Source of the DNA: Antitrichia curtipendula
Taxonomy: Eukaryota > Streptophyta > Bryopsida > Hypnales > Leucodontaceae
Length of the DNA stretch: 64,000 bases
Assembly: GCA_951230915.1 (NCBI GenBank)
Contig: OX579635.1
Coordinates: forward strand, 18,538,001-18,602,000
Direction: 5' to 3'
A model generated the notes under the pieces. That model saw only the letters and a list, made by a program, of their open reading frames with translations. It did no database searches and was not told the DNA's origin. A program made the position numbers and the translations under genes. Shown in pieces: positions 9,008 through 54,211 of the stretch. Position 1 is the stretch's first letter; each line of letters begins with the position of its first letter.

Positions 9008-9737
9008 GTTGCTAGAGGGTTTACCACTTCGGGAAGACAACCCGCGTCATATTTGAAGTAGTAAGGACATTTAGCAATATTTGACAGCTTTGTAGGATCT
9101 CAAACGCTAAAGATGGTTGCTGGAGAAGTAACTTCTAATTCAAAATGCTAGTACAAGAGAGGCCGAGAGAGTGATCAATGACATTGGAAGTTTCAGGAGT
9201 TGAGTAATTAGTGGGATTGTGAATTAAGTGGAGTTGAGTTTCTTGTCTATCGGGAGACGTCGGAATTTATTCTAGAGTTCGCCAATCCTGGTCTTATTGG
9301 CCCGTAAGTACTAACCAAAAAGGAAAGAATGTTATTCGCGGGGCTTCATAAATGATTTGCGTATAGACACGCATGGAGAATTGAATTAATTCATGATAGA
9401 CACGCTTCCAGTGAAAATATCAACAAGGAAAGAAAAAACGAAAACTAGTGGGAATAAATTTTTGGTTTGTTGTCCGGAGTGATTTCACATGGCTAGTTCC
9501 TATGGAAGCAACACCGTCTACGAAAAAACTCGTATCTGTCCAGGAGCCACAATCTGAGTAAGGCATCAGGGTTCCGTTTAGCGGCAGGTTGAACTAGTCG
9601 GCCAGGGCATGTGATTCTCGGACGGCGTTGACGATTGGGTTCGGGATTCGATTTGGCAACACTCGCTAGGGTTTCGGTACTCGTCTTTGCTGTCGACCTC
9701 GGTACTCTTTTGCTCTTGGACGCCGCACTAGTTCATG
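9008..9737. other. E1 spacer with no gene seen
   Basis: AT-rich non-coding sequence lies between the small basic ORF and the minisatellite. I see no domain-bearing frame or structured repeat in it. It could be intron or 5' leader of the rightward gene. Confidence 0.5.
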
Positions 9738-10345
9738 CTTGGACACACAGCCAGGGATCGGGACTCCTTAGCTTTCGGGTCTTGAAGTTGTTCATGCTTT
9801 GAACACCGGTAGGGTTTCAGTAGTCTTCTGCTCTCGGATCCGGTACTGTTAATGCTTGGACACACCCAGAGTCTCGGAATTCTTTAGCTCTCGGATGTCG
9901 CAAATGTTAGTGCTTGCACACAAGCCAGGGATCAGTGGTCTTGAATTCTTATCTCCGCGACTTGTTCAAGCTTGGAAACACGCTAGGGTCTCGGTACTCG
10001 TTTGCTCTTCGTTTCCTTACTTCTTTTTTCTTGGACACACGCCAGGGTCTCGGTACTCTCTTGCTCTTGGATCCAGTACTTTATTATGCTTGGACACACA
10101 CCAGGTTCTCGGTACTCCTTTGCTCTCGGATCCAGTACTTCATTCTGTTTTTTATGTTTGGACACACGCCAGATCCTGGTACTCTTTTGCCCGCGGGTCC
10201 GTTTCTTCTTTATGCTTGGATGCAAGCCAGGGACAGGTTCTCTATTGCTATCGGACCCGGTCCCGTTTCATGCTTTGACAAATCCCAGGGATAAATCCTC
10301 CCTTGCTCTCAGATCGGGTACTTGTCAACGCTTGGATACTAGTCA
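9738..10345. repeat. Degenerate ~60-bp minisatellite, about 11 units
   Basis: A unit resembling TGCTTGGACACACGCCAGGG followed by a TCTCGGTACTC...TTGCTCTCGGATCC segment recurs about every 55-67 bases, with anchors near 9,738, 9,798, 9,853, 9,913, 9,968, 10,030, 10,088, 10,155, 10,213, 10,270 and 10,330. The array keeps all three forward frames open and creates overlapping spurious ORFs. It lies 330 bp upstream of the first ATG of the ParB-methyltransferase gene, where it could be leader or promoter sequence. E2 has no counterpart. Confidence 0.85.
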
Positions 10346-10874
10346 GGAAGTTCACCAGATTCTAATACTCCGCAACATCCCGAGTTGGGATAATCGAAAG
10401 ATTTACGTTTCTCCAGTCCTGTTTAGGGTGCTCGCGAGAATTTCGTCCAATTTGCTAGAAATTCACTTTAGGGATTTCAATCTTCATTCGCAAGCCTTTG
10501 ATTTTATTGAAGGAGTCAACCAGGGCGATACATTTGGCTCGTTTCATACTACTCAGTCAAGTTTGCAGTTACGATTCACTATTTTCTTTATTAATTTGTT
10601 GTCCGTTCCACCGTTCACTTTCATGAATTCACTGAAGCCTCACGAGAATGTTGGATTCCAGCAGGTTCTGCCAAGATGGACAGTGAAGGCGCAAATCCGT
10701 CACCAACCAGCACAGACAAAGCGGAACTGGAGTGGCAGAAAAAGCGCAACGAGGAGGAAGGAACGGACACCACATGAGGTAAAATTCCCAAGCTTGGTGC
10801 ATGTTTTGTCAACACTCATATGTGCAATGAATTGCATTTGTACTCATAAAAACGAAGCACCGCCTTAGAGGGTT

Positions 10875-11024
10875 GGAGGTAGTGCCGATGTCGGCACCAC
10901 CTCCAAGGGGGGGCTTTACAAATCCGCAGCGCCCCCTTGGAGGCACTGCCGATGTCGGCAGCGCCTCCATGGCGGGGCTGCGGTTTTGCAAAGCAACCTT
11001 GTGGAGGTGGTGCCGACGTCTGCA
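10875..11024. repeat. Three palindromes at exact 64-bp spacing, methyltransferase intron 1
   Basis: TGCCGATGTCGGCA occurs at 10,883-10,896 and 10,947-10,960, and a variant at 11,011-11,024. They are spaced exactly 64 bp apart inside the first intron (10,779-11,091). The first two are cores of larger GGAGG...CCTCC palindromes (10,875-10,904 and 10,939-10,968) that could extrude as 30-base hairpins. They share their core with the repeats in the transposase intron at 5,392-5,610. Confidence 0.9.
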
Positions 11025-12237
11025 TTGTCTCGATGGGGACTTCACAGAGCGAGCTCTTCTCAAATTCGCTGTTTTTTTGTCCTTGGTGCAGCACAATCCG
11101 CGAACATGACCGATCCTGGAAGGGAGTCGGTACGAGATAGGCTGCAATCCTCGTCGCAGCCAGAAATTCACGAGTCGGGTGCGAATCCTAAACCTGGTTT
11201 TGTGAGGTTATGTGTTTTCTTCGCCTTTGGCTAACGGTAATTGTTTCGCAGAGGAAGTGGGTGACGAGGATGTTGAGGCATCCCAACATACTGATGAAGC
11301 AGAAAAAACGTCAATGGAGATGACCGCCGAGGAGCTTGGGAGGGAAATGGACAAGATGATTGTTCGGGAGTCGGTGAATACGAACGTTGTCTTGGACAGG
11401 CTGCGATTCACACCAAGGGAGAAGTCTAAGCTCAACATCCCGCTCTGTCGAATGAAAGCTCTGGTTGCTGTTCGACCCTACCTGAAGAATGACGTGATGG
11501 CACTGGGTGCACATTTTGTAAGTACAGGATACATGGACGGGCACGGTGTTTTCTATGTCGCCTTGCAGGACAACGAGGGCAAAACACTGGACGTGACAGA
11601 CAAGGATTTGGCTAGTTGGAGTCCGTTATGGGTTGAGGCAAATGAGAATTTCGAGAAGGAGCTTCAGAAGGAAGACGCCTGGAAGCAATTCTCGGGAAAG
11701 ATGTTCTTCGTCTAGGATGGCAACCATCGGCTCGCGGCCTGGCTGCCAATAATTAACAGAGACCATGGAGACGACCCGTCATGGCATTATGCGGTTGAAT
11801 CAATTGTTCTGGAGGTGGAAGGCCAGATTGGGCCACTCCTCACCGCGTTGCACCAAGTGAATTGGTAATCCACGAGCCCGGCCCTTTTCTCTTGCTCGTT
11901 TACTGTGAAGTATGTGTGCTCTTGTGTTCTTACTCTCAACTGCTGAAACAGGAGAAACCAGACCTGCCATGTGAAGTTAAACCTTGTACACAAACTCTAC
12001 CGGCTTCAGAGTATAGCTGGCCAGCCATTGTCCTATTACGAGAATCTAGTTACCACTAAAGAGCTAGCTGACGCCGAAAAGAAGCAGAGGTCAAAGACCC
12101 GAACATGGTACACGTTAACGCTTGACGGGCTCATAAGCGTTCTCTATCAGGTACGGCCCTTTATCATGCTTGATGATTTGAGACTTTTTCGCTGTTTGGT
12201 GATGTCTTTTTCTTGGCGTGAGACTCTTAAAATGGAG

Positions 12238-12317
12238 TGCCGATATCGACACCCCTCTCAGTGGTTCACTATGCTCAGCTGTCTGGGACACCACTGAAGG
12301 GGCTGCCGATGTCGGCA
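12238..12317. repeat. Palindrome pair in methyltransferase intron 4
   Basis: TGCCGATATCGACA (12,238-12,251) and TGCCGATGTCGGCA (12,304-12,317) lie 66 bp apart in the intron 12,151-12,457. Flanking GGAG/CTCC and GAGGGG bases extend the symmetry. With the other two arrays, this makes eight copies of the motif in E1, all intronic. Confidence 0.88.
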
Positions 12318-15311
12318 CTCCAAATCCAGTACACTTGTTGCCTTCTGCTTCGTACTACCACTGCAATAGACGGGTTGAGGATTTCAATGTTTTGCAACAT
12401 AATTCTTACACTTCTCCAAAATTTACTCTTTCTGTCGCCTTGTCCGTTGTCTTGCAGCAAGAGTTAGGTGAGGCAGTAGCTTACGCCACCAGGAAATTCA
12501 AGGAAAAGTATCCGGAGAAATCAAGTGAATGGACTACGGGGAAGTTGTACGATGTCATTGGGAAGGCCGTGGATAAAGTGAAGAAGGATATGTCATCTGA
12601 TGTGAAGAAACAACTCCCCATTGCTGACCCAAGGCAAACTCCGCAGTTCCTGGAACAAGTTAGGATTCATTATGAGAACCGAGAAGACGACCCGGAGATG
12701 TCCCAAGAGAAGTTGTGGTATCTTTCTACCTCGGTCATGGACACGGCAGTGAAGGTCAAATGGCTGGAGCGGTGGAACAAACTTGCCTCGCTTCGTGAAG
12801 CAATGAGGTTCCCGAAAAGCAAGTTCCCGGATCATGCATTTCCCGACTGGCTTCACAAGGCCACCTGGTGGGCTCAGGTACAATGTCTCCCTATTCTGTT
12901 ATTTTCATTGACTTGATGCTGTCGTCTAGGAGTTATCACTAATTCCCTGTTGTAGTTGGCAAGTGCGGTGCAGGAATTGTTCGATGCGACTCTTTCTGAG
13001 CTGGATGTCACAATCAATTATCAACCGCCTGGGGAAAGTCCAATTCCTAGCATTGCTGATTATGTGGAGCAAAATCGTATCTAGCTTTGGGATACAGCAT
13101 TCTCCCATGTCTTTGATGGCAAAGGAGTTCACAAGAATCATCCTCCTGAGTTTCAGGTTGGTCTTGACAAGGCTGTTGCGAGGGTTCTCTATCGGTGTTT
13201 CAAGTTCGTGTTGTATGCAAAGAACGCCACATCAAAGACGTCGTCATTCTTCCCAAGCTACTTGGACAAGCGTGCCGAGAATTGTATGATCTCGGATGAT
13301 ATCGCGAGAAAGTGGAAGAAAGAGCACTGGGAAGTCTGTGGTTGGTATATTGACTGCCCCTTGAACAATCCTTCGCACTTTGAGATTGATTTGAGGAACA
13401 CGGTGCAACCCGATTTGGCTGGGCTGAAGACGGTTCACGATACTCCGCGTAAAGATGCGCCTGCTAAGAAGACAAGGGGCTCAAAGAGGAAAGCAGAGGA
13501 AGAAGCAAAGAAGAAGGCTGCCTCAGATGCTGCAGCCGCTCTGGAGAGTGATGTTATGGCTTCGGGGAGTGCCAAGAAGACTGCGGTTCCATCCCTGGGT
13601 GAAGATACGGAAATGGAGGCGATGGAGGTTGTTCTTCCCAAGCCTTCGCAGCTCACTCCTAGTGGTGCTCGTAATCCGCATGTTCCTTCTCTTCCTGGCC
13701 TCTTTAGCCCGCTGTCGTTTGTAATGCACAAGCTCAAGAGCGCAGTCGCCTCTCGGGTATTGGCTTCGGCGTCAGGATCTTCTGTCAAATCCAGTGTCTG
13801 TGTACAGAATACCAGCCTCTCTCAAATTATGGAGGCTCTCCCGGAGGTGCACATTTGCCTTGACGCGGTGAACAAGTTTGTTCTCAAGGTTTGTCTTTAT
13901 ACTCACCACATTTCTTTCACTAATTCCTGTGCGTTTAGAGGCAGACGGGATTCTATGGTACTTCTGTTAAGTATGAATTAATCAAATCCACCTTCTGTAA
14001 TCTCCAGGTCAAGGAAGAAGTTGGTGAAAAGGCTTTGAATAAGTCTTGTCCGCACAGTGGCTTTGATTTGATTCATGTCGATATCAAGGATGGCCTCTGG
14101 GTTCCGTCCATTTCGGTAAACCCCGGCGATGTCCCTGCCTGGAATGCGTACTCGGAGCAACACACTGAAAGTCTTTTTGAGTTTGCGGAACACTTTCTTC
14201 ACGATGCGGGTGCAATTCTGTTGTTTGTGCCAAATGTTCCAAAGATCCGAACCGATGTGCTGTCCTATGCACATGGCTACAACTTCATTCTGTATCGAGA
14301 GTGGTGGGAAATTAATGACCTGCCCTCTGCGTCGTTTTACAATTCAACGTATAAGGTAACTACTGTTTCAAATCAATACTTCATTTCACTGCATTCTACA
14401 GTTTCTCCTGGTTCTAATTCAATTCCACTATAATGTCCATTTTCAGAGCAGAGGATTCCGTATTCAGCTCTTTATTCACCGTGCCATGGATGCTAGCAAA
14501 TTCATGATTGCGACCGACCAAGCATTAGTGGAGTTCGGAATGGGAGTTGCTGAAACTGACGTGTTGTTCAATTTCACTACGGCGGTCACTCAATCCATGA
14601 ATGGATCTATTCCGTGGAGAGGCGCCCGTGAGAAGGACCCAGTTTTCCTTCAAATGTTGATCGAGGCTTTTACGATGCCTGGATCCGTCATCCTGGATGC
14701 ATCCGCTTCTCTTGGTGAGTAGTCTTTTCTATCGTGATGCTTCTCCTGGTAAATAGTCTTTCCTCTCATTTTTCGAGTCATTTCTAAATGTAAATTGTTT
14801 CATCCGAATTCAGATAACTCTGTTCGAGCTTGCAAAGCTATTGGACGACACATTGTGGCCCTCGAAGACGATATTGAGATCTTTCGGGCTAAGTTGGAGC
14901 ACTTAGACCAGGTTGAAGCTATACCTCCAATTCCACTTGAAGCTTCCGAGACTCCAGCAGAGATTGCACTGGACGTCCCTATTCGGCATATCACGAAAAA
15001 GAACAGATTCAGTAAGTACGTTTTCTACTTGATTCTAATTTGTTTCATTTTCTTGTTTGTGATCAGTTCACTAACATAAACTCGTTTGTCTCAGAGTGAT
15101 TTCCTTACTACATTCTCCGGACAGAGACTATTTTATGGTGCCGTGGGACGCAGAAGTTGCTGTGTTGCAAGCGGCAGGATCTTCTCCGACCTCCACGTCC
15201 ACTGGTAGATGTTCTGGTAGACCCGTCCGTCTTTTTATTGATGACGAGGCCGATGTTGATATGGAACCAAGACCAGTATCATCTGGCAGTTTTTCCACTT
15301 TCTCATTTTGA

Positions 15312-16481
15312 TAATTTCATTGTCTGCCGGATTTATTGTTATAATTCTTTTTACACGCATTCATTTTGTGCTTTCGTTTGTAATGTTCAAAGTGTGTATA
15401 TATCAGTGAATGGTTTATCTTAACATCCATTCGTTGTGTATTTGAATGTGGTTGTCTAACTGATCAGCTTAAATACATCAATTCTCCGAAGTATTTGTGG
15501 CTTGGACTACACTCTCAATGACTGGGGAATAGATAGACATATTAAGCACTAAACCTCGAACCCTCTTAAATTTGAGGAAGTTCTACATGCGAAGTCTCCC
15601 TAATTTCATTCGTAACCTGTTTATTAATCAATTTGTTCATAAACTTGTTGCAGTCTGTTTGCTCTATCATTGTTGAATGCATTCAGATTATAATTTTCAT
15701 GAATGGATGTTTTTTTAGTACATTTGTTTCATCTCTATGACGTGAATAAATCCTCGATAGTTTCCATTTTTTTCTTCAACTGTTGGAGACACACTCCATA
15801 AAGGCCTAAACTTATTTCTACTTCAAAAGTGGAAATCCCAGAAAATATACAAATGTTGATGCCCTCAATGTGATTGCTTGTTCCTAACTGGGAATCCAAA
15901 AAAATATTGAATTGGTTAGCTGACGAAGTTGTTTCTGTTTCAAAATTGGGAATCCAAAAAAATACACAACTGTTGAAGCCCCCCAAAGTGTTTTCTGGTT
16001 TCAATATGGATTTCTACAATAATTTCCAAATTTCTCCTTCAACTATTGGAGGCACACTCATGTTTGCAGTTTTTTTAAGGAATATGAAATGTTCTATTTT
16101 TGTTAATGGTGTGATTATATCCAAAGATAACTTACTTTCTTTTAAGGAACTCTTCCCATGGCCTCAGGGTAACAATGGCCATAGGGTGTCTACGGCCATA
16201 GGGCACCTACGCAATTCCAAAAATAAACCGTCTCTATTTGCCATTTGATCACCCTGTGCCGCCTATTACCGTGGTCAATTGTTTCTCACATTCGACTAAC
16301 CTCACGGCTATAGGGCCCTACTTTTGTACAACTATTTTTATTTTTACTTTGTGTTTAACTTAGAATCTATCTTTTACTTTTACTTTTATAGAATATGCCC
16401 ATTTTAGGGGACCCTAGGCTCGCAAAACTACGCTCACCGCTCTATGCTCTACGCTCACCGCACGCAAAATAGCATCGTCCC
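15312..16481. other. E1 right non-coding arm and terminus
   Basis: No gene is seen. About 15,775-16,060 holds three to four degenerate copies of a roughly 70-bp unit containing GGGAATCCAAAAAAATA. CACGGCTATAGGGCCC at 16,303-16,318 is a diverged inverted counterpart of the left subterminal motif. The last 70 bases are short repeats of CTCACCG, CTCTACG and CTATG leading into the right inverted terminus, which ends at 16,481. Confidence 0.6.
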
Positions 16482-16490
16482 TTCCACTAG
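16482..16490. repeat. Right target-site duplication of E1
   Basis: TTCCACTAG matches the left duplication TTCCACCAG (2,994-3,002) at 8 of 9 positions. Immediately beyond it the Harbinger transposase frame resumes. Confidence 0.8.
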
Positions 16491-40825: not shown

Positions 40826-42126
40826 ACCCATGAATTCCCAAGGCGTCTTTTCATTCAAAAACCACTCAACATTGCCATTTCTATAGCAAAGAGGAAAAAA
40901 TTAATTATTTAATTTTTTAAGAATATCTAATTGTAGGATCTTGTACTAGACTAATATGAAAATGTGTGGAAGAAATTTCAGAAACTTTGACCATGCAAAT
41001 TGCAAGATATTTGCATTTAAAGTGAAAGAAACAACGTTTTTTGCACATTGCTCAACTACATTTTTTTGGCTTTGAACCTTTTTAACTTAAGATCTTTGCT
41101 CTACTGATTTTTAATATTTAATTTTATATAATAAGTAATTGAGTTGAGTCTAGAAAAATAAACTCAAAAAAGCACACTTAGTTTCCACACATAAAAAAAT
41201 TGTTAAGTAGAAGTGGATTCAAGATTGAAGGAAAATCTAAATTGTTAATAGCTCTAAGATGGAATTGAAATACACTAGTATCAATAGTGAGATTGTTCTA
41301 GCAAGAAAGATTAACCTTGTGTAACTTCTTTTTTTTTAATTGTGAAAATTGAGGTTAGAAATGAATCCTATAAGTTATTTTTTCAAGAAGATACTTTGAT
41401 TGCTTGAAAAACAAGATTGTCCATAACTTTCACTTAACAAATCCAAATGGAATGAATTAAAGCTTTCCATATACACAAAAATATAATCATACAAAAAAAA
41501 TTAAATCTTTTTTACTTTTAAAGTTTTTAAATTCTTTTTTGAAGGTTTGTATTTAAAGTGAAAGAAATAAGTTTTTTTGAAGGATTTTTTCTACCTGCTG
41601 AACTAAAAAAGGGCTTTTAGTGCCATAACTTTTGCTCACGGTCTCTAACTAAAATTTAAAAAATTATATTTTTGAAAAACTAAGGTATTTTTCTATCTTA
41701 ACAAAAAAATTAAAAAAATCATGACAAATATTGAGACCACAAGAGGTTGCCAAAATATATTTTGTCCCTCGAGGGGATAATTGGACTTTAGGGGTTAAAG
41801 TGTATGTATTTATGACCATTTTATATAATTCCTACTGTTGACTATATTTTTACCATAACTGCTTCAAAATTGCCATTTCTAGTACAAGTACCAAAGTTTA
41901 AAAAAACCCATCTTTTGACATATGTAATTGTAGTATCTTTTAATATGCTAGTTTGAGAAGATGTGGAAAAAAATTCAGAAATTTCCACCATATAGATTGC
42001 AAGATATAAGCATTTGAAGTGACAAAAATCATTTTTGAGGTCTTTAAAAAATTGGGGAGCTGTACTTTACAAGGTCACATTTGTATGAAAAATGTCTATG
42101 TTGTTGTTGCTTCTTTGGATTTATTC
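40826..42126. repeat. Left part of the 1.8-kb dispersed repeat split by E2
   Basis: AT-rich, non-coding. It matches the reverse complement of the unit at 21,150-22,942 up to the E2 insertion point. The remainder continues at 54,203-54,770. An inner terminus-like phrase (CCCTCGAGGGGATAATTGGACTTTAGGGGTTAA, here named by its 41,766-41,798 position) suggests a smaller copy nested within it. Confidence 0.5.
42118..42126. repeat. Left target-site duplication of E2
   Basis: GATTTATTC directly precedes CAGCGGTGCTATTTTG. The identical nonamer follows the right end at 54,203-54,211. Confidence 0.88.
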
Positions 42127-42328
42127 CAGCGGTGCTATTTTGTGAGCCTGTGAGCGGCGAGCGGGAATACTGTGAGCAGGGAGCACTGGAATTAGAAAAA
42201 ATAGTATAGACATCAATAATATTGGAAAATAAAAGGAGAATCCAAACATTTTAGGCTAAATTTGAAGTTCATTATAAATTTCAAGGTGATAGGTCCTCAG
42301 ACCTATCACCGTGGACCTATGACCGTGG
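42127..42328. promoter_or_regulatory. E2 left terminal and subterminal region
   Basis: The terminus runs into repeated GTGAGC words (42,140-42,185). A hairpin AAGGTGATAGGTC...GACCTATCACCGT lies at 42,283-42,313, and GACCTATGACCGTGG follows at 42,314-42,328. The latter matches E1 3,167-3,181 exactly, and its inverse sits near the right end of E2. Transposase binding is the likely role, by inference. Confidence 0.6.
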
Positions 42329-42569
42329 ATAAGTATTATTTGTATTAGGGGTGTTGTTTATCATAATAGCATATAATGATGAGAGTATACATTGTAAAGA
42401 CAAGGTGAAAGATGTGAAAGATGAACCTGACGAGGTGGAAGGGTGTATAAAATATAACCTTCAATTACAAGATTTTTCCAAAGAATAATTTATACTTCTG
42501 TCCACAAGTGTAACTTCAGTCAGAAGTAATTTACATTCAGATCTCAGGCACTCTCAGGCTCTAGGGTTC

Positions 42570-45500
42570 CTAAGTATCAAACAGAACCTCGTTTGGAACG
42601 TTGATGATACCAGCCCGAATGAGGAGGTGCTTGACCTCATTAAAGCTGAAGCTTGGAGAATGGATGAACTTGTCATCTACTAGGTTCATTTTGCAAAAGT
42701 AACGAAATAAGTAATAGAGATGTTTGCAATTAACATATTGATGGCGTCCACCAATTGCTGAAACAGCCATGTCCACAAAATCAGGACAAGTACACTCCGA
42801 GTACATGCCCAGTGTGATTCGGTAAACTTTGTGTGCAGGCTCCGTTCCAGATTGAAGGGAGATTATGGCTCCAAGTCCAGGAAAGGGAAGCATAGTGACT
42901 CCTAAGATTGTTCCTTTGACGTTCCCAACACTCTCCCACTTATTGCGATGCTCTGTAGTAGGAGCATTTGCAATACGTCTAATAGGCTTGTTTCGGCGAG
43001 TTGTTGGATAGGTGTCTGCATGCACAGGGATAGGCTGATCATACATGACCGCCTCAAAAACATTTGACATCGTGAATAATCGTCGAGGTGACATAGGTGG
43101 TCGGTCTTGGAGCTGAAATCCAGCTTCCTGCAGCAGAAGTGTTTCCTGACGAGATAAACTAGTGCCTGTCAATACAGGCCAGATATCTGGTACTTCAGGC
43201 CAATCAATTACCCAAGCACGTTTAGAGCCTCGCACGCAACGGTGAACATCATCTGGGCAGAACCAAAAATCTGTCACGATCTCCTTATTTCCTCCGTACT
43301 ATTTTTTGCGTCCGCGGTATGTAGGAGCTGGAGTGCCTTTGATTCCTCTTGCAATTTTGGCAACGCAACGGATGTTTGATCCTCGCTGCTGGGCATGACA
43401 TTTGCAGCTAGACTTGTGGGATAACCTCGCAATATACCATTGAGAAGTGTCACAGTCACTTTCTAACGCAGTAGTGATATGTGGCACATGCTCACAGTTA
43501 GCCACTTCGTTCCTATCCCTGATAGACTCCGTGGGTGTGCGTGTAGATCGAGTCATGACTCTTGGCTGAGAAAAGTTCACCTTGTCCGGCCGATGAGAAT
43601 CACCATCCGACCCAATAGGGAGGTCTAGTTTGCGCTAACTGCTGCCAAACACCTCTTCACCCTCCAAATGCGGAACACGTGTTGCAACCTCAGCTGCTCC
43701 AGGAATGACATTCAACGCCTCCGCGATCTTTTTGGGGTCGCCGCTGCGTCTAGCGCCTCTTAACTTTAGCTCTTCTTTCGATGGACCCGACCTTGACGTT
43801 GTGCCGTTCAAGAAAGACCGGTAATTTGTCATTTGCATGAAGGCTCGAATACAATCATCACAGGTGGCGGCAAATAAGTCATTACTGCGATTACTCGACT
43901 GCTGCAACCATTTGTTGTGGACTGTTTCAAATAAGTTGCATGATGGCATGTCTGCAATTTCGTGAACACTCAATCCCTGGAAAAAAAATATTCTAGTTAG
44001 TCCTATAATGGTTTAGGCTGAAAAGGCTCAAACTTCAGCTTCCCTAGGCATGGCGAAGCATTCATGATTTTGATCTCGTAAGTAGGCTGTGAAGGCACCT
44101 CTCGGCTCCGAGAGGTATGGCTTCCTATTGCTGGTTTGATCACAATCATAGTTCTCTGTACTAATAATTTTGTAACAAAGAAAGCCATCTCAAAGTGGTA
44201 GTGCAAAAGAACAAAAGCAACACAACTGAAGGAGGAGACTAAATATACCATTTGCATAAAGCCTCCCCATTGGCGATATCGAAAGTGCCAAAAGGCAAGC
44301 CACAACTCCAGTTCACGCATAGCATCTTCTGAGGCTGCCCCGGATGATAACCACCAAGATCGAATGGCCAAATACCTTGTCTCAGCTTCCTCCATACTGA
44401 TTGAGTCTTTATATTGCTTGCATAGACGTATATGCTGGTGTTGCATATCCGGCTTGATGAGCTTCTGGGTATGCCGGTGCAACGAAGTACTCCAATGCAA
44501 AAGACATGTTCGTTCGCGATTGACCATCTCCATTTTGGGGTTCCCCGTACCGTATACAATTCGAACGGCATTCCAATTTGCTTGCACGCTATCTGCCATG
44601 AAGCCCTTGAAGTTTGTATTCTCTACACCGTTGCGTCTCATGACATCATTTAGTAACCTCCACATAATGCACTAGATCTCAGTATCTTCAGATTGCATGT
44701 CACAAACAGCGATTGTCATCACCTTTCTACATCCTGTGTCATAGACATGACAGGCTATGGTGGTCCAATCCTTTACTCGTTTTACGTGATCAAACATGAG
44801 CCACGCGTTCTCCAAATCTCCTCCCACTTGCATACGCTTCACCATGTCAACCCCACTACCAGGTCCATCGACCAACATCTTAAACAAGTACACTTTTTCT
44901 TTTCCCTGTCCAAGAAAAATGCTCTCATGAATGTATTCGAACTTTAGATTGCGTTTCATATTCATAATGCTATCTATGACCCCACCTTTTCCAATGCTAC
45001 GAAATGAAGAAATAGTATTACGGATGTTCGGGGAACTAAGGATCTGGAACCTATCCATGACATCTTTCAGCGACTTCCCCCGTAGCATCTCCTTTTGACC
45101 TTCACCATTGTGTATGAGGTAGTTGTCCAAAAATTGCTTACTAGCTGCAAGGGCTATGGCTGAGTTAGTGGCACTAGGGGTTTTTAAGACTTCACCTGCA
45201 ATGAGCTCCGAAATGGTGTCTAACGACTCTCTACAGGTTCCAGAAGCAACAGGATGCAAGTGATTACCCAAATGAATGCACGCTCTCGTCATCCCTGGAG
45301 TACTACCATAAACGTAATAAACTCTAGCATCACAAGTACTGACACAGTGCGGTGAACTTTTGCATATTTTGCAAAGAACAGTAGAATCTTTTGGAGAGAT
45401 TGCACCAACATAGAATGGAATAGGAGTATATCCACACCATTCGGTCTCATTCCTCTTGGAAGATCGCTTGAGATAGTCACAATCAGAATTGTTACAAACC

Positions 45501-46429
45501 AAATGACCTGCACAAGACGATTTCCGGAATTTCAAGCTATCTTGGTTATGGATATTGGATGTAATGGTCCGACACCATGTGTGACCATCGTATCGTTTAT
45601 CCATACCGTGTAAGTTCCCAGCAACGGACGATGAAGACGGAGCACGAAGACAAGGCAACTCAAATACTACGTTTCCATCAAAGTCTGCAGGAAGGTACTG
45701 CACCTTTTGATGGTCGAGCAAATCATAATCTAATGCAGCAACTTCGTTCCTAGATCCGCGAATAGATGCTAGTTTCCGAAGGCATCCAACGATACTATGT
45801 CCGGCTGAACTATTTGGATCAGTTGGTGGTCTTGAGTGAGTGGACAAAGCAGGACTAGTAGTAGGCGTGGAGTACCTACCGGATGTTGTTTCCAGGACGT
45901 CATTACAGACACGTCTAGAAAGCGTTGCTGGAAGACCTGGTTGACTTGGCGACTCTCCCTCCGATTCACTAGATAAATCTATCACAGGGACTTGAACTTC
46001 TTGCTTCACTCGGACAAGTTGAACCGGAGTCGTAGCAATTGTAATGCGTTCACTGTCTATTGAATTTCCTATATTTTGGCCTACAAACGGCATGTTAACA
46101 GTGGAGTGGTCTGACTGCCGTGGCAACCTCTCAGTAGAAGTATCCCGCATGATAGAAGGCAAACCATATACCCTATAACGCCCTTGACGGAGGTGCCAGC
46201 AATGACCATCGTCTAGTACTAACTTTGGGATATGGATAGACTCTTTTAAGTGTCCCAAATCAGACATGACTTCTTCCTCAACATAAATACTAGATTGGAG
46301 AAATCCGAAACGAACATAAAGGAGGTGAGAAGACACAATAGCATACCCTGTTTCTCCTAAAGGCATAACTAATGGAATTTCATGGCCATCCGCTCTAATG
46401 GTGGCCATTGAGGAAGCAAACATGGACAC
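42570..46429 (-). pseudogene. E2 Mutator-like transposase (WRKY/GCM zinc finger, DDE, SWIM)
   Basis: Two exons (46429-44249 and 43976-42570; intron 43,977-44,248) give one 1,195-residue frame with three in-frame TAGs (44,672-44,674, 43,635-43,637, 43,299-43,301) and no frameshift. A Ser/Pro-rich N-terminal region precedes LHGMDKRYDGHTW. The zinc finger has CAGHLVCNNSDC, CKIC, C-x4-C and HLGNHLHP, resembling the WRKY/GCM fingers of many MULE transposases. The DDE residues are D547 (LMFDHVK), D613 (FMADSV) and E744 (CNLFETVHNKWL), with CLLHW after the second Asp. A SWIM finger (CTC...NCKH) lies at about residues 1118-1146. It would cut and rejoin the element ends in the nucleus. The stops suggest an inactive copy. 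Confidence 0.85.
44097..44116. repeat. E2-type palindrome in transposase intron
   Basis: ACCTCTCGG-CT-CCGAGAGGT is a near-perfect 20-bp palindrome in the only intron of the E2 transposase gene. The same core appears in the methyltransferase gene intron (48,389 and 48,516) and near the right end (53,249). Confidence 0.85.
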
Positions 46430-47186
46430 ACTTGAAATGAGAACAGTTTTACAACAACCGGAAGGAACAAAAACTCCTAGTGAAGGAAGTGGATCAAGCG
46501 TAGAAGATATGAGGGCATATAATTGTCCTGCAACGGGAACTTAAGAAGATAGGAATAATGTATCGTCATCGCGTATAATGATGCAGTGCTGTCAGTAGCC
46601 CCCAATTTGGATGTCTAAAATCGCCGCCCAAATGTATATTAGGAGTGAGTACTTTTAAAGCGAGACAGTATTTAATCTAAGTCATAAATGAAAGTAATTC
46701 AAAATTCAAGGACCATGTGAATTGTCTGTAGATTTAGGATACATGTAGAGAGGAGCCCACAAGGACAGCTCCTACTCTGCTACTAAAATGCAAGTACAGG
46801 ACCTTTGCTCCCCATCCCAAGATACATCACGACGTCTTTGCATAGATGTCCTTTAAAATCATAAGAAATTTAGGTGACCTATATAATTGATGACATATAG
46901 ATTTTGGAGACGGGCTAAATCTAGGGTGACAGATTTCAACAGCTCTTTGAAATGGCTGCCACTACCAACTAACACACTAGTATTAGAAATAACATGTGAA
47001 CTCAGTTGTGGTTGCCATAGTTCAAGTTCATAGTTGTGGGATTCTGTTCAGAGGCGTTGAGTCTAAATGAAATTACAGCAAGAGAGTAGGAGTTCCAAAT
47101 GGGTCATGAGGATATGTATGGACATCTTAGTTAGAGGATTTAGGAAGGGTCATTACTTTCCGAAAGTAATATGAACTATTAGTCTC
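46430..47186. other. E2 central spacer between divergent genes
   Basis: This 757-bp non-coding stretch separates the two divergent start codons and should hold both promoters. I see no gene and no motif shared with the E1 spacer. Confidence 0.5.
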
Positions 47187-47740
47187 ATGCCTTTAGCACT
47201 ACACATATCCGACTGTGGTGAAGGGAGTAAAGCAAGAAAACGCAAAAAGAGAAGAAGGTCCCATTTCTCATCGCGAAAGGAGTTGACCCGTGCACGATTG
47301 AGAAGGCAAAGTACTGAGACCAAGAAGAGAGAAACCTTGCTCTGTGGGATATCCTACATCGGAGACTTCAAAGCCTTCAAAGACTTCGGCGATCATTCTG
47401 TAAGTCCTGCATAATCGCATAACCATAATTTGCTTCATAAATTACTTTTACATTTGGAATTATTAATGAACTAAGTGATTCTCCCATGATCATTAACATG
47501 CATTTATAAAAGTGGAAATTCAATACAGATTCGACGATATCTACATTAGGAAATCGATGGCCCATTAATTAATCTCAATTTTAAAACTTGGGGCAATTCA
47601 CACATTGTGTAGTAGTTCATAGAATCGGGATTAACAGCATCTCCACCAGGGAGTTCTCATTTCCTAAACACGAGACCTCAATCCTGTCAATCTTGACTAT
47701 ATACGGATATGACCTGGCGTGTTCTGTATATGAGCTTGAA

Positions 47741-47779
47741 TATAGAGAACTCGGCCCAAGTTTTACCGAGTTCTCTATA
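47741..47779. repeat. 14-bp-arm perfect hairpin in first intron of E2 cargo gene
   Basis: TATAGAGAACTCGG and CCGAGTTCTCTATA are perfect complements separated by 11 bases. It lies in the proposed intron 47,400-48,125. Function unknown. Confidence 0.8.
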
Positions 47780-48386
47780 CATTGTTTCGAGATTGGTGTG
47801 CGCAAGCTTTTTTATCGCCAGCCCCATCTGAGGTCCTCTCCCTTGAATGTTAGGGATACAGAACTCACTGGTGGGATTGTTCTAAGCAACGATCATTTTG
47901 CCTTTTCTACCAGCTGAGGTACCTAGAATCGGAAAAACTCTACGTGCACATGGAACTTACTGGAATCCCTAATTCTAAGAGGTTCGTCCAAAAAGACGAA
48001 GGAAGCAGACCCGATGCGTGTCTGGTTCGCTTCTGCGCGGATAGGGTCTAGGGGCTTGTATTATCATTGCCGCGATTTCCAGCAACCCGAAAAATATTAA
48101 CACTCTTCTTTGCTCGCAATACCAGGAGCCCGAGTCGATGGCGAGGAAGGCGGCAACCAAAAATGCCGCTCCAAGAGGACGCAGTCGCGACGGCGATCGA
48201 GTGAACGAGGAGAAGGACAGAGATCGCGAGAACGATGAGCGGGCCAGTGACAGAATCAGCCCTGAGAAGGCGCTTGAAGAAGAGCTAGCGACCGACGATG
48301 GAGCTACCCCGAGTGTCCAGGGCAAGAAGGTAAGAATCTCAAGCTTCCTCCCCGTTGTCGTTTTGCTTGTGCATGCTGCGCCTAAA

Positions 48387-48640
48387 TCCCTCTCGACGCC
48401 GAGAGGAGCCCTTGCCCTCCCCCGACATGATCCCCAGTTGGAAGGGTGATCGGGGATGCTTCTATATTTTTTTTTCCTCCCTGCTTTAGTGCTCCCGATC
48501 TTGTTGTCCCTGTGCCGTCTCGACGTCGAGAGGAGCCCTTGCCCTCCCCCGATATGATCCCCAGTTGGAGGGGTGATCGGGGATGCTTCTATATTTTTTT
48601 TTCCTCCCTGCTCTTGGTTTTCCAGATCTTGTTGTCCCTG
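48387..48640. repeat. 127-bp tandem duplication with palindromes, in E2 cargo-gene intron
   Basis: Two copies of a 127-bp unit occupy most of the intron 48,330-48,754. Each begins with the E2-type palindrome (48,389-48,406, CCTCTCGACGCCGAGAGG; 48,516-48,533, core TCTCGACGTCGAGA) and continues with CCCCGAYATGATCCCC...GGGGATGC, itself a weaker inverted repeat. The arrangement parallels the tandem palindrome arrays in E1 introns although the sequence differs. Confidence 0.9.
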
Positions 48641-51600
48641 TGCCCTCTTGCTCTTTTGCCGATGCTGAGGGCAGCCGACTTCACCCCACGACGTGATTGA
48701 GTATTTCCTGATGTTGGGTTCAACCTCAAATTTGACTGGTGTTTTGTTTTACAGGTTTTACCCGAGGTATCTCTTGCTCCTGAGGTCAACATGGACCCTG
48801 AAAATATTGAATCGTATGCCCCTGATCAACCGGCCATTTCAACGGCTGAAGACATGGATTATGACGGTTCCGAGGCCGATGAAATAGAGCCAGTGGATGA
48901 CTTTATGTCAGAGGATGCTCTACGTAGATCCCAGAAAGTCAATTCGGTGTCGTCCATCTCCAGTCTCCGAGTGAAGCCCCATTCGGTATCTCTAATCCGA
49001 ATTCCGTTGTGCCGCCTGTCTGCAATGCCTATGGTTAAACCAGCATTGAAGTCTGACTTGACTAGGCTAGCTGAAGAATATGTTTTTGGGTACAGGGATG
49101 GGTCGGCCGTCTTCTATGTTTCAGTTACAAATGAACAGGGGGAGGAGGAGCACGTCAAAGAAAGTGAAAAGGTTGCTTGGGGACCTCTTTGGAATGCAGA
49201 GAATGATGTTTTCAATGCAATTCTGAATACGATGCCGGAATTGAAGCATCTCCAGAACTCTAAGTTCTTTGTATGCGATGGTAACCATCGCCTTCTGGCT
49301 TGGTCATCATATATTACTCTACACCATGAGACTGACCGAGATTGGCATGTTTCCGTTGACTCAATTTTATTAGAGACAAAGGGGCGGATTGGAGAAGTCA
49401 TGCATGTTATGCACGACATAAATAAGTACGTGCACAAAGCTCTTCTTTTGTTTTGTGATTCTTTCGTTATTTTTTCCTATGAGCCACGAGATTCTGACGA
49501 ATTGTTTGACTTGTGATTACAGACACACTGAGAATTCATTCATCCGGACAAGCTTGGTGCACACCTTGTATCGGGTCCGCAAATACGGAGTCATGGCTTT
49601 GGATAAGTTTGCCAATCACTTGAGTACCTCTGAGATGTTACAATGCACTCAAAATTTGAGGAAGTCATGGTACAGCATGTCGTTAGAGGTGTTCACGGCG
49701 TTCATTTATCATGTAAGCGTCAACTTTGGCTTGAAGTACATTTCAGTTACATTTATTCTCCAGTTCTCATTGTTTTCTCATCTCACATGTCTTACCCATT
49801 TTCCGTTGCAGTATGAGATAGCTGCCGCAACAGATACTGCAGTGAGGTTGTATAAGGAAGACACGCCAATGGAGAAGCAGACAGAGAATGGAGTTTTGGC
49901 TGCGATGAGACTGGGAACGAAGGAGAAGACAGTTGTCTTGACCAAGAAGTTGGGGAAGCTCACTGCCGTGGCTAATCCAAGTCTAGGGAAGGAGTGGCTT
50001 GATGAGGTGACTTCTCTATATAACAGATTTTACTATTTCTCAGTGTTGTTGCCTGTATTTGTCATTCTAATTTGTCCAATGATTCTATGAAGATTGAGCG
50101 TCACTGGTGTACAAACACTATTCCGGAGATGACTCTCGACAAGTTGCAGATGATTGCCACGTGCAATGTAAAGTCAGAGCATAAAGTCATGTGGTTACGT
50201 TGGTGGAACTCGTCCACCCCAACTAGAGAGGCGCGTCGATTTCCTATGAAGCCCGTGGGAGAAAATGATTTAAGAGCCTTCTTAGTCAAGGCGTGTTGGT
50301 ACGCAGGGGTGAGTGACTCTAATTGGTGTTTGACTAGTCCCTCGTCCCCTACATTATTTGAATTCATAATTTATATCTATCTACAGGTGTTCACTTGCAT
50401 GGTTATACTTAGTTCTCACCGCTTTGATCTCTTGAATGTTCAGATAGAGGATGCAACAACAGAAATGTTTGACAATATCGTCAAGAAGGATAATCTGGAT
50501 TTGGCCATGGACTCGCCTCAAGAGCCCGAGGTTTTAGCTGAATACATCGAGGGCTGGAGAATCCGATTGTGGGATCATTCATTCCTTTCTCACTTCAGAG
50601 GCCACGATGTCTTCAAAAAGTCTGATTTGTTTTCGAAGCACAAGGGTTCTGACCTCGTGGTCAAGCGAGTAATATTCAGGTATTTTTTGATTTGAACTGA
50701 TTTTTGTCAAGTGCAACCAAATTTCGTTTTCTGGAGATCTCTTTTATATCACAGCTCAGAGATGCATCTACCTTGTCAGGTACTTCAAGTACGAGCTACT
50801 TCCAAAAGCAGCAATTGCAAAGCGCGACCTGCCTCCATTTCTAAGTACATGGCTAGACGTTTCCACCAAACATTGCATGTTTTCTCCTTCACAGTTGCGG
50901 TGGTGGACAAGTGCTCACTTGAAGTCTGGAGCATGGTATTTGGACTGCCCTCCTGAGTTCACACCTCTAACGGAGGAGCGACTGAAACGTTCCATTGACT
51001 CCCAAGAACTTGTGCCTGAGTATGACGAGTTCAATGGCTTGGACGAGGATGCTAGAACAAAGGCAATGAAGAGGAGGGAGGAGGCCGATAAGAAGATTGC
51101 CGTGAAGAACTCCGAGGCAGTCGACAAGGCGCTTCAACGAGTGATGAAGAAGAAGTTCAAAATTGTTGAGAAGGTGAAGGTGATGTCTAAGGAGAAGAAT
51201 GTGGAGCAGACTCCAAAGCAACCGATAGCCGGTTCATCTGTAGTGGATCAGGGTTCTCAATTGCAAACATCAGTTTCTAGAGGCTCGAAGCGTGGATCGG
51301 AGTGATTAGCTCTCACGGAAGCAGGCTTAGTTCGTGGACCCACTGTCATTGACTTGGTCAATGACACTGACGTCTCCATTGATGAATTCATTTGCAACTC
51401 GTCTCTAACAGCAGTTCTTGCTGATCCATTGCCTTCGCTTTACTATGACATACTGAAATTCATGGAAAAGGTGCGGCCCTCCCCTCTCATCTATATTGTC
51501 ATTTTCACTCACATGTTATCTATTTTGTGTAATTTACTGAATTTCCTCTTAATTGCAGCACGCAGCGGATAAAGATCGATCCTTCAAAGGAGTTCGGAGT

Positions 51601-52953
51601 ACGTCGCCACGGGTAGACCTCATCATCGCCGACATGCCTGAAGGGCTACCTGTTCCTACTGTGTCCAAGCCTCCTTCTGCCATTCCAAAGTGGAATCAGG
51701 GCTCCGATTCTTGGCTTGAATCTCTTTTTGAATTCGCCGATGGACATTTACAGCCGGATGATGGGGCACTACTTATTATTTATCCTTATAGGGCCCAAGC
51801 CCAAGCTGACATCCGTAGCTATGCAGATCCCTATGCTTTCAAATTACGGAAGGAATGGTGGGGGGCAAACCGCTTGCACTTAATGTCGCCCTTGGATCGT
51901 TCATTGACGGTAATGTCCCCTCTCATGTCAAGTTCTTTGCTTCACTTCAATATTTTTGCATTATGGTATGAGCTGTAGTGACATTGATCACTTTTGTTCT
52001 GCAGACGTTGCATTTTGGAATCCAGTTGTTTGTGAGGAACTTGCCGAACGTCGGTCCTTCAAAGTTTGCATTCCAGCCCTGTCCGACATTGCTTGCACTC
52101 GGGGTGGATGTTGAGCGTGACGACATTATCCAGAACTTCACTACCTCGGATACCATGGCCATGGACAAGGGTATACCGTGGAGAGGGGCGCGTGAGAAGG
52201 ACCCTCGATTTATGGCCATGTTCATTGAAGCGTCATCTATCCCGGGTGACATGGTTCTGGATTGTACGGCTTCAACGGGTATATTGTAGAACCAACCCTT
52301 CACGTGTTAATGATGCAAATTACATTTCAAAGTTGTTGCACTTGATGTAGTCATATTTTAATTTCAATTCAATGTTCATGTTTCAGGGGCCTCCATTCAC
52401 GCTTGTAGGCTTCTAGACAGGCACGTTATAGCCCTAGAAGAAGACAAGGCCATCTTTGATGCAATGTTGGCTCCTCTCATTCGTTCAGTTCAAGTTGTTC
52501 CTGTAACACTTGCACCTGTGACATTGGCCTCTGACGATCCAGATGCAGAGGAGGTTGTGGTTCAACATATTATCAAGAAATCTCGATTCAGTAAGTAAGT
52601 CCTTTTTTAATTTGCATTTTCTCATGTTCATTTCACCTTAGCCTATCTTCAGACATTTATAACTCTCCTTTTGTCCATGCAGCATGATTAGTAATGAGGC
52701 GCAACACTGGCCATTCTACTCATCGCCCAGATTTTTTCCTAGTCCGGAGAAACCGTACATACTACCCCTCTATGCCGAGGCGTTAGCAGTTGAATTTGCA
52801 TTCCACCGCCTTCTTCCTACACGGAATAAGGCTACTCCTTTAGACCCTAGGGTGTTGGAATTTGTAGATGTGGAAGCTGAAGAAGAAGATGAGGAGACCT
52901 CTAGCAGTGATAGCAGTGTTCATTCTCACTCAATGTCTTCTTCGTCTACGTGA

Positions 52954-53665
52954 TCTTGTTTTGAGATAGATCATTCTTGTTTGATCTATGTCTCCATCTT
53001 CGACACCTTATTTTATGTATTTGGATAATGATGGCAATATAGGTACTAGCTCATGGTCCTCAGATCTGAATTTCTATTGTCAATATCTTGTCATGGTTTT
53101 GATTGTGGTATCCATGCTATAGATACAATCATTTACTACTTGTTTTAGGAGGAGCGAACCTTGATTTGCCTAAATTGATTAGAAACAAAAAGAGCTTTGT
53201 TGCTTTTAATTTTAGGGGAAGTGATCAATGTTCTAAACCATCGTGGGACCTCTCGGCGCCGAGAGGGTTATCAGACATGTGCTTGGTAATCTGCAACCGA
53301 GACCCTAAACCTCTAATTTGATAACCATTACAGAACAATATAAGTTCCATAGTCATTTATTAATGTACAAGCTAAATTATCCTACAGTTAGTACTTTTAA
53401 GTGTTATTAAGCTTATACAATACAATGCAACTCCAATTATGTACTTCTTACTTTTCACCCTAAACCCCTATCGATTGGGATCTCTAACATCCCCTCATGT
53501 AAGAGGACTTTTATGGAATGAGTATCTGAAGATCAGATGGAATTGTATACCATACATCATTGTGGTAGACATTTCACTCTAATCATCAAGTTTTGTATCT
53601 AATAAAATTTGGAAAGGGATCCAAATTAATTTAGTTCATATGATGTACTTCCACCTTTTAGGTAA
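52954..53665. other. E2 right arm, non-coding
   Basis: This is 3' flanking sequence of the cargo gene. It contains the perfect palindrome CCTCTCGGCGCCGAGAGG at 53,249-53,266, the fourth copy of the E2 motif and the only one outside an intron. I see no gene. Confidence 0.6.
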
Positions 53666-53676
53666 ATGTGAGATTT

Positions 53677-53873
53677 TTTATTTTTATTTTTTTGGAGACA
53701 AGCGTGTTGAGGAAACACATTGCAAAGGGTCTGTTAGGAAGAGAGGCTAATTTCACGCAAGGTAGAGAAACTACTGCCACCAGGTTTCAAACCCGCAACC
53801 ACAACATTTGGTTTAGGTACCTCACGACCATCCTCCGGTAGTTTAGGGTCATCGCGGATCGACATGTGAGATT
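53677..53873 (-). mobile_element. tRNA-derived SINE, ~197 bp
   Basis: On the minus strand it has an A-box-like TGGTCGTGAGGT, then a B-box-like GGGTTTGAAACC at tRNA-like spacing. It ends in an A/T-rich tail (AAAAAAATAAAAATAAAAAA). It is flanked by perfect 11-bp duplications ATGTGAGATTT (53,666-53,676 and 53,874-53,884). It was copied into the right arm of E2 after E2 existed. Pol III promoter boxes, tail and duplication together support a SINE. The family is not identified. Confidence 0.8.
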
Positions 53874-53938
53874 TAGGCCATCTTCAAATCCTATAATTTT
53901 CTAAATCTACTATAGAATTCCAAAGAGGCGCAATTCAT

Positions 53939-53955
53939 AAACCCTAAACCCTAAA
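53939..53955. repeat. Short plant-telomere-like repeat
   Basis: About two and a half units of CCCTAAA lie near the right end of E2. They are too short for a telomere and are probably incidental. Confidence 0.6.
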
Positions 53956-54107
53956 CCAAATTAGTTCATCATTTTATAACTTCAAGTATAGTGAAATTCG
54001 ATAATATTTAGCCATAGAATTTCCCTCAAGGGTTAAAATCATTTTAGGTATACAAAATCCAAACATTATTTTAGAATTTCTATCCTACTGCTGTATTTTC
54101 CATAAAC

Positions 54108-54202
54108 ACGGTCATAGGTCCCACCCTAGAATTCAGTCTAAGAAACTATATGCTCACAGGCTCACAAGCTCACGCTCGTAGGCTCACAGAATAGCAACCC
54201 TG
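54108..54202. promoter_or_regulatory. E2 right subterminal and terminal region
   Basis: CACGGTCATAGGTCCC (54,108-54,123) is the inverted counterpart of the left subterminal motif. Repeated GCTCAC words (54,150-54,188) then lead to the inverted terminus ending ATAGCAACCCTG. Confidence 0.6.
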
Positions 54203-54211
54203 GATTTATTC
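54203..54211. repeat. Right target-site duplication of E2
   Basis: GATTTATTC is identical to the left copy at 42,118-42,126. The dispersed repeat resumes beyond it to about 54,770. Confidence 0.88.

What the first reader, a model, noticed from the sequence alone, without database searches (positions are those of the whole stretch)
42127..54202. Giant MULE-type transposons carrying a ParB-domain / DNA-methyltransferase-like fusion protein
Two independent elements (E1 3,003-16,481 and E2 42,127-54,202) pair a MULE transposase with a divergent gene that fuses a ParB/Srx-like DGNHR domain to a permuted methyltransferase-like domain. ParB-methyltransferase fusions are known to me from bacteria and phages, not as cargo of plant Mutator elements. 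Repeated association in two diverged elements, with shared exon phases, argues for a stable two-gene system. By analogy with MULEs that carry anti-silencing proteins (VANDAL/VANC), the cargo might counter host silencing or mark element DNA. That role is inference.
Basis: partly seen in the sequence, partly recalled or inferred. Interest (0 to 1): 0.95.

Follow-up and report, generated by a model that had tools for sequence, protein, structure and literature searches.

The report
Plant transposon with ParB-methylase-like partner gene
Two large jumping genes in a plant genome pair their moving enzyme with a second gene that resembles a bacterial DNA-marking protein, and each family also carries its own repeated mirror-image DNA sign, which suggests that the second protein recognises the jumping gene's own DNA.

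Summary
The observation largely holds. E1 (3003-16481) and E2 (42127-54202) are real insertions with about 9-bp target duplications. Each has a transposase gene and a divergent, intron-rich cargo gene (about 1100-1180 aa). The cargo's C-terminal half resembles permuted beta-class amino-methyltransferases (CcrM E=8e-5), with substituted motifs IV and I. Its DGNHR motif is strongly conserved, but no profile or fold test showed ParB membership. LEAFY marks the host as a streptophyte.

New: each cargo subfamily examined has its own CG-containing palindrome, repeated in non-coding parts, often in tandem arrays. Totals far exceed reversed-pattern controls (183 v 0 and 262 v 0 sites; 104 v 0 and 339 v 2 strand matches). 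Listed sites segregate with their own subfamily (contig C1: 40/40 v 0/40 and 47/50 v 0/50). A palindrome looked for in one further subfamily was found. In one element pair the cargo changes two to four times faster than the transposase.

Best reading: a sequence-specific self-recognition protein, working like Arabidopsis VANC. ParB-methyltransferase accessory proteins are already published in algal transposons, so this is a new variant. Binding and anti-silencing are untested.

The parts
42127..54202 (.). E2: complete two-gene element (Mutator-type by target duplication and ends)
   Evidence: 9-bp (up to 11-bp) target duplication and inverted repeats
42118..42126 (.). left target-site duplication of E2, GATTTATTC
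54203..54211 (.). right target-site duplication of E2, GATTTATTC
42127..42178 (+). left terminal inverted repeat of E2 (CAGCGGTGCTATTTTGTGAGCC...), imperfect
54151..54202 (-). right terminal inverted repeat of E2 (read on minus: CAGGGTTGCTATTCTGTGAGCC...), imperfect
42570..46540 (-). E2 transposase gene, several exons, not fully modelled; core 44252-45541 with one in-frame TAG; C-terminal CxC...CxH SWIM-like stretch encoded in 42570-43298 (motif name recalled)
48138..52953 (+). E2 cargo gene, 11 exons: 48138-48329, 48755-49425, 49523-49712, 49812-50006, 50093-50308, 50387-50679, 50780-51470 (in-frame TGA at 51303), 51559-51909, 52005-52278, 52387-52594, 52683-52953
   Evidence: splice model; matching exons 2-10 in L069
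48755..49425 (+). exon 2: DGNHR (ParB/Srx-like by motif order only) domain
   Evidence: alignments A2 and A8
51559..52594 (+). exons 8-10: permuted methyltransferase-like domain; motif IV DMPEGLPVP in exon 8, motif I DCTASTG at the exon 9/10 junction
44099..44114 (.). E2 palindrome CTCTCGGCTCCGAGAG (one mismatch), in a presumed intron between homologous coding blocks of the transposase gene
   Evidence: position relative to coding blocks read
48390..48405 (.). E2 palindrome CTCTCGACGCCGAGAG in cargo intron 1
48517..48532 (.). E2 palindrome GTCTCGACGTCGAGAG (one mismatch) in cargo intron 1
53250..53265 (.). E2 palindrome CTCTCGGCGCCGAGAG downstream of the cargo gene
3003..16481 (.). E1: diverged two-gene element inside a Harbinger transposase gene; duplications TTCCACCAG 2994-3002 and TTCCACTAG 16482-16490
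10676..15312 (+). E1 cargo gene (broken copy), 9 modelled exons, last one probably mis-phased
   Evidence: local matches to the E2 cargo 29-36% identical
5434..5593 (.). E1 palindromes TGCCGATATCGGCA at 5434 and 5580 and a one-mismatch copy at 5507 (73-bp repeat, presumed transposase intron)
10883..11024 (.). E1 palindromes, one mismatch each, at 10883, 10947, 11011 in cargo intron 1
12238..12317 (.). E1 palindromes, one mismatch each, at 12238 and 12304 in a cargo intron

Best explanation
E1 and E2 belong to a large streptophyte family of Mutator-type two-gene transposons. One gene encodes the transposase. The divergent gene encodes a fast-evolving DNA-binding accessory protein made of a DGNHR domain, a long middle region and a methyltransferase-like domain with substituted catalytic motifs. 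The protein most likely binds a 14-18-bp palindrome specific to its own subfamily, repeated in the introns and flanks of the same element, and so marks the element's own DNA. The likeliest use is to keep the element's promoters and introns free of host silencing, as VANC does for VANDAL elements, or to raise expression or transposition of its own kind only. Shown: gene pair, linkage, methyltransferase-like homology, palindromes, their specificity to subfamilies, faster cargo evolution in the pair compared. Inferred: that the cargo binds the palindromes, that the domain acts as a reader rather than a methylase, and the anti-silencing output.
For: Divergent linkage in 23 of 23 loci where a transposase was listed. 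Palindromes: E2 type 183 sites v 0 for the reversed control; type of the 80-85% transposase group 262 sites v 0; E1 type 55+49 strand matches v 0; L075 type 139+200 v 2. The idea of a different palindrome in other subfamilies was written down first (note); in the one further subfamily I could fetch, L075, 8 copies (6 exact to the pattern) stand before cargo exon 2. Segregation of listed sites: on contig C1, 40 of 40 E2-type sites lie within 12 kb of E2-type genes and 0 near the other group, against 0 of 50 and 47 of 50 for the second type; E1-type 57 of 73 within 2.5 kb of E1-like cargo exons, L075-type 70 of 88 near their own group and 0 near E1-like. All 12 window sites avoid the modelled cargo exons; the separate E1 clusters, and the E2 sites at 44099, 48390 and 53250, share little beyond the palindrome (9-17 of 40 flank bases; random mean 10, 99.9th percentile 20). 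For E2 v the C1:1378x element, transposase dN is 0.095 and cargo dN 0.22-0.39 by exon. Published VANC21 motifs likewise sit in non-coding tandem repeats and change between related elements, while the transposase is more conserved (PMC5735166).
Against: No binding, methylation or expression data. The palindromes could be bound by a host protein or by the transposase. The E2 type and the second type share the core TCGGCGCCGA and differ by about one base per half-site, so that pair is a small step; in L069 the outer bases are not symmetric. In 12 of 35 cargo loci no listed transposase lay within 20 kb. No DNA-binding fold was recognised in the cargo (weak HTH_metalloreg matches in 9 of 60 exon-2 relatives, best E 0.029 are no proof); both structure models are poor (mean pLDDT 43 and 48.5). 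The cargo showed no VANC domain. Of the listed sites, 15 of 73 E1-type and 18 of 88 L075-type were not within 2.5 kb of a listed cargo exon.
Confidence: 0.5

Rival explanations
1. The cargo is an active N4-cytosine or N6-adenine DNA methylase that writes a bacterial-type mark at or near its own palindromes, which host machinery reads or which blocks 5mC silencing.
For: Similarity to beta-class amino-methyltransferases (CcrM, DpnA). The D, G, L and VP around motif IV are kept in all four aligned relatives. The four palindromes contain CG. The authors of PMC12477816 propose epigenetic self-modification for the Ectocarpus protein.
Against: Motif IV is D-M/I-P-E instead of D/S/N-P-P-aromatic, and the motif I glycine pattern is altered (canonical motifs recalled). 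E1 has DIKDG. The best PF01555 score stays just below its cut-off (26.0 of 26.7 bits).
Confidence: 0.25
2. The cargo is an accessory factor of transposition or a self-repressor: it binds palindromes near the shared promoter region and in introns to set transposase level or to pair element ends.
For: Many palindromes lie between the two divergent genes or in the stretch before cargo exon 2. Some MULEs carry a second gene needed for integration or with a DNA-binding role (passages of PMC6446971).
Against: Copy number varies from a few sites to 25 listed in one element, more than an operator needs; many sites lie far from the ends.
Confidence: 0.2
3. The palindromes are ordinary minisatellites that spread with each subfamily and have no bound protein.
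For: Many copies are in tandem arrays with regular units of about 140, 107, 73 or 64 bp, which slippage could multiply; subfamily specificity alone follows from shared descent.
Against: Within E1 and within E2 the palindrome recurs in unrelated flanks at three separate places, and the E2, E1 and L075 types each centre on a different palindrome, perfect in its best copies.
Confidence: 0.12

Closest known systems
[quoted passage not shown] its references 50 and 51 not read)
   Same: About 1100-aa fusion of the same two domain types in a giant DNA transposon, transcribed opposite to the transposase
   Different: Here in a streptophyte element with 9-bp duplications, not Sola1; substituted methylase motifs; palindromes specific to each subfamily. 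No sequence comparison could be made, so homology is not shown
VANC of Arabidopsis VANDAL MULEs (PMC5735166: abstract, Results part 1 and section 9 read)
   Same: Second gene of a MULE-type element, evolving faster than the transposase; short motifs in non-coding tandem repeats that change between related families
   Different: VANC has DUF1985 and DUF287 domains per the paper, none found here; the VANC21 motif YAGTATTAY is no perfect palindrome and lacks CG; VANC action is shown by experiment, here nothing is
Phage and bacterial ParB-N6_N4_Mtase fusions (PMC12704722, passages only)
   Same: A DGxHR-type domain combined with an amino-methyltransferase; often on mobile elements
   Different: No ParB profile match here; about 500 aa between the domains; introns; no relative by pattern scans of GTDB genomes and IMG/VR with exon 2
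CcrM / DpnA, beta-class DNA methyltransferases
   Same: Permuted order and C-terminal motif X-I block; E=8e-5 and 1e-4
   Different: Catalytic motif IV and glycine loop substituted
ParB-parS
   Same: Repeated palindromes on the same molecule as the gene
   Different: No ParA gene noticed, no recognised ParB domain, integrated transposon

Membership tests
Mutator-like element (MULE) | 8-11-bp target-site duplication (recalled) | tested here: met
   E2 9-11 bp exact, E1 9 bp with one mismatch
Mutator-like element (MULE) | MULE/Transposase_mut profile match of the transposase | tested here: not met
   no MULE family among matches; Transposase_mut in 2 of 48 relatives, best E 0.034
Mutator-like element (MULE) | long terminal inverted repeats | tested here: met
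   about 52 (E2) and 61 (E1) aligned bp, imperfect
beta-class amino-methyltransferase (PF01555) | sequence profile match | tested here: inconclusive
   4 of 4 aligned relatives match at E up to 10, best E 1e-5, 0.7 bits under the cut-off; CcrM E 8e-5 with a 4-sequence profile; no exon-wise match in the genome at E 0.001, 127 candidates scored
beta-class amino-methyltransferase (PF01555) | catalytic D/S/N-P-P-Y/W/F and SAM-binding FxGxG (recalled) | tested here: not met
   D-M/I-PEG and TASTG-like
ParB/Srx superfamily | ParB_N profile match | tested here: not met
   PF02195: 0 matches in the own genome at E<=1, while 11 of 14 controls ring; 60 relatives give 16 weak Pfam families, among them DndB 0.0059 (1), DUF1015 0.061 (5), DUF6551 0.18 (1), ParB_N not among them; consensus 0; PDB best hit ribosomal eL24 at 0.011
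ParB/Srx superfamily | fold | tested here: inconclusive
   model pLDDT 43; Foldseek shows no E<=0.001 match
ParB/Srx superfamily | DGxHR motif (recalled) | tested here: met
   D, G, N, R invariant and H at least 90% in 60 sequences
VANC | short motif in non-coding tandem repeats, specific to each family | tested here: met
VANC | DUF1985/DUF287 domains | tested here: not met
   no such family among Pfam matches of the spliced E2 cargo at E up to 10
VANC | binds the motif and causes loss of methylation | not testable with these tools
   needs ChIP-seq, gel shift and bisulfite data

The most novel reading that the evidence does not exclude
Plant transposons carry a self-recognition system built from a phage-type ParB-methylase protein whose methylase half has become a reader: protein and palindrome co-diverge, so that each subfamily frees only its own copies from silencing. 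It would be a second, unrelated origin of VANC-type anti-silencing, with a parS-like array as address label.
Probability: 0.35. Interest if true: 0.9.

Novelty: new variant of a known kind. Interest (0 to 1): 0.75.

Why it matters
ParB-methyltransferase proteins have been noted in algal transposons with only a suggested target. Here a candidate target is visible in the sequence: one palindrome for each subfamily examined, often in arrays, segregating with the cargo gene. That turns a guess (binds and modifies its own transposon) into direct binding and methylation tests, and suggests that self-recognition by transposons evolved more than once. It may also offer sequence-specific epigenome tools.

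Tried and rejected
Rejected or set aside: 'cargo only in two elements' - there are many copies. 'ParB shown by fold' - both AlphaFold models are poor. Foldseek's top hits for the methylase model include several methyltransferases (MTA1c, CcrM, METTL3-14, MboIIA) mixed with unrelated folds, all with E>0.2, so not used as proof; the DGNHR model gave nothing. 'Prokaryotic or viral relatives' - pattern scans with exon 2 found none in GTDB genomes (52 stretches checked) or IMG/VR (30 checked); phage tblastn gave one weak match for exon 2 and weak ordinary methylases for the methylase half. A first search with the single E2 cargo found one relative only; the exon-2 profile found 340. A ParB profile for comparison could not be built (led nowhere). 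dN/dS is saturated for most pairs; the values obtained run from 0.10 to 0.41 for the cargo and 0.05 to 0.06 for the transposase.

Literature: searches listed no paper that I recognised as being on palindromes in ParB-methyltransferase transposons; the library holds open-licence PMC papers only, and I read only the parts named.
Full report
What is there. The window is bases 18,538,001-18,602,000 of contig C3 of a 400-Mb genome in 303 contigs. The genome has a LEAFY C-terminal domain in two neighbouring matches (best E 2.9e-51; 0 of 14 controls); LEAFY is, as I recall, confined to streptophytes, so I take the host for one. The species is not known to me. E2 runs from 42127 to 54202 between copies of GATTTATTC, and E1 from 3003 to 16481 between TTCCACCAG and TTCCACTAG; the inverted ends align imperfectly over about 52 and 61 bp. 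E1 splits a Harbinger transposase gene (profile positions 76-158 on one side and 1-79 on the other), and the joined empty site is one open frame of about 290 aa.

Genes. The E2 transposase core (430 aa) has 98 matches in this genome (98 of 1666 first-look candidates were scored), and a four-sequence profile has 320 relatives in public assemblies (120 listed). Pfam does not recognise it as MULE; Transposase_mut appears in 2 of 48 relatives at best E 0.034. The Mutator label therefore rests on the 9-bp duplication and the long ends. The divergent cargo gene was spliced by hand and checked against L069, a copy of about 60% identity, in which GT-AG exons were found at matching positions for exons 2-10; the automatic model shortened exons 4 and 6. 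The window copies are broken: TGA in cargo exon 7 and TAG in the transposase core of E2, several stops in the E1 cargo. Other copies lack these stops, and 23 of the 24 rows from C1:24872424 to C1:29239060 have no stop in exon 2.

Linkage. Of 35 cargo loci read, 23 have a listed transposase within 20 kb and all 23 are divergent; 12 have none, two of these with one at 24-25 kb. itself scored 43 of 3949 candidates and did not list all matches.

Protein domains. The C-terminal half matches PF01555 in 4 of 4 aligned relatives at E up to 10 (best E 1e-5, 26.0 bits against a cut-off of 26.7), and a four-sequence profile finds CcrM (E 8e-5) and DpnA (E 1e-4) among PDB chains. An exon-wise search of the genome with PF01555 gave nothing at E 0.001. 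Motif IV reads DMPEG or DIPEG in E2, L069 and P0001 and DIKDG in E1; motif I reads like DCTASTG. Among 23 E2-type loci, 17 keep DMPEG and 6 do not. Compared with the canonical D/S/N-P-P-aromatic and FxGxG (recalled), both motifs are substituted, so a reader or scaffold role seems to me more likely than ordinary catalysis, though not certain. In the N-terminal domain D, G, N and R of DGNHR are invariant and H is kept in at least 90% of 60 sequences, but no ParB profile matches. Among 16 weak Pfam families of those 60 are DndB, DUF1015 and DUF6551, which I recall as DGxHR-type; PMC12704722 (passages) treats SerK and sulfiredoxin as having the ParB-CTPase fold. Against it, the best PDB match is ribosomal eL24 (E 0.011), and NCBIfam gives HTH_metalloreg weakly in 9 of 60 (best 0.029). 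Both structure models are poor.

Palindromes. E2 has four copies of CTCTCGRCGYCGAGAG within 3 mismatches (0 of 100 shuffles reach four). E1 has eight TGCCGATRTCGGCA-like copies; six match an 18-base form within 3 mismatches, and 0 of 100 shuffles reach six. None lies in a modelled cargo exon; the ones at 44099 and 5434-5593 lie in presumed transposase introns, which I did not model. Flanks of the separate clusters are hardly more alike than random stretches (9-17 of 40; random mean 10, 95th percentile 15, 99.9th 20). Genome-wide, with the pattern read backwards as control: 183 sites v 0, CCTCGGCGCCGAGG 262 v 0, GTGCCGATRYCGGCAC 55+49 strand matches v 0. I then fetched the stretch before exon 2 of a cargo gene 61.5% identical to E1 (L075) to look for a further palindrome, and found eight copies, six of them exact to AGCCGTTRACGGCY; genome-wide 139+200 v 2. 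Two more groups could not be fetched. In one element 25 listed E2-type sites stand mostly at 140-bp steps or multiples of it.

Segregation. On C1, 40 of 40 listed E2-type sites lie within 12 kb of E2-type genes and 0 near the 80-85% group; for the second type 0 of 50 and 47 of 50. Over the whole list, 48 of 50 listed sites lie in or within 4 kb of elements I had listed. Of 73 listed E1-type sites, 57 are within 2.5 kb of an E1-like cargo exon 2 and one near my second list; that one lies by an 84% E1-like fragment that I had put on the wrong list. At 10 kb it is 67 and 1. Of 88 listed L075-type sites, 70 are near the second list and 0 near E1-like, at both distances. These 2.5-kb zones make up 0.15% of the genome. 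For this count I used 120 of the 150 matches; weaker fragments and the 38-44% groups were left out, and two further borderline rows (71% and 78%) sit on the second list. Only the first 100 rows of each pattern search are listed, so these are partial samples. The E2 type and the second type share TCGGCGCCGA and differ by about one base per half-site; E1 and L075 types differ from them and from each other more.

Evolution. For E2 against the C1:1378x element the transposase core differs by dN 0.095, cargo exon 2 by 0.29 and exons 8-10 by 0.39, 0.31 and 0.22. Silent sites are saturated in most cargo pairs; where a ratio could be had, cargo dN/dS is 0.10 (L069 v L074, exon 2), 0.41 (E2 v the broken E1, exon 2) and 0.20-0.29 (exon 10), transposase 0.05-0.06. 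The cargo is thus constrained but changes faster. Related cargos have related palindromes: E2, L074 and L069 share TCGGCGCCGA, and E1 and L075 share GCCG(A/T)T half-sites.

Reading. A faster-evolving second gene, a more conserved transposase, and family-specific motifs in non-coding tandem repeats are what Hosaka and colleagues describe for VANC and VANDAL (PMC5735166; abstract, Results part 1 and section 9 read). That is how I think this works, but it is not a VANC: no DUF1985/DUF287 and a different domain make-up. ParB-methyltransferase accessory proteins are already published in algal transposons (PMC12477816, second part of section 5; of the works it cites for green and red algae one was not held, and neither was read). 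The searches listed nothing that I recognised as describing such palindromes. Binding of the cargo to its palindrome is inferred, not shown; a host protein or the transposase could bind instead, although the transposase changes less between families whose palindromes differ.

Noticed in passing
window 2619-3161 and 16458-16973, minus strand: A PIF/Harbinger transposase gene split by E1; next to it at 1684-2250 (+) an ORF with weak Myb/SANT-like matches, perhaps the Harbinger partner gene.
   Followed up: partly
window 56972-57595, minus strand: ORF with GTPase matches (MMR_HSR1, Dynamin_N, RsgA).
   Followed up: no
G000 C1:41.4-42.1 Mb: A block with 16 listed, nearly identical copies of the transposase carrying one TGA and one TAG each, often 40-48 kb apart: probably a segmental duplication.
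   Followed up: no
window 3170, 3275, 16192, 16263, 16304, 42317, 54108: Repeats like CTATGACCGT near both ends of E1 and E2; 7 of the 8 window matches lie there, one at 29032 outside. Possible transposase-binding sites.
   Followed up: no
window 53938-53960: Short run of plant-type telomere repeat (CCCTAAA) in the right part of E2.
   Followed up: no
L001-L008: The eight fetched TGCTATTYTG sites carry sub-terminal sequences unlike those of E1 and E2, so many small non-autonomous relatives may exist.
   Followed up: no
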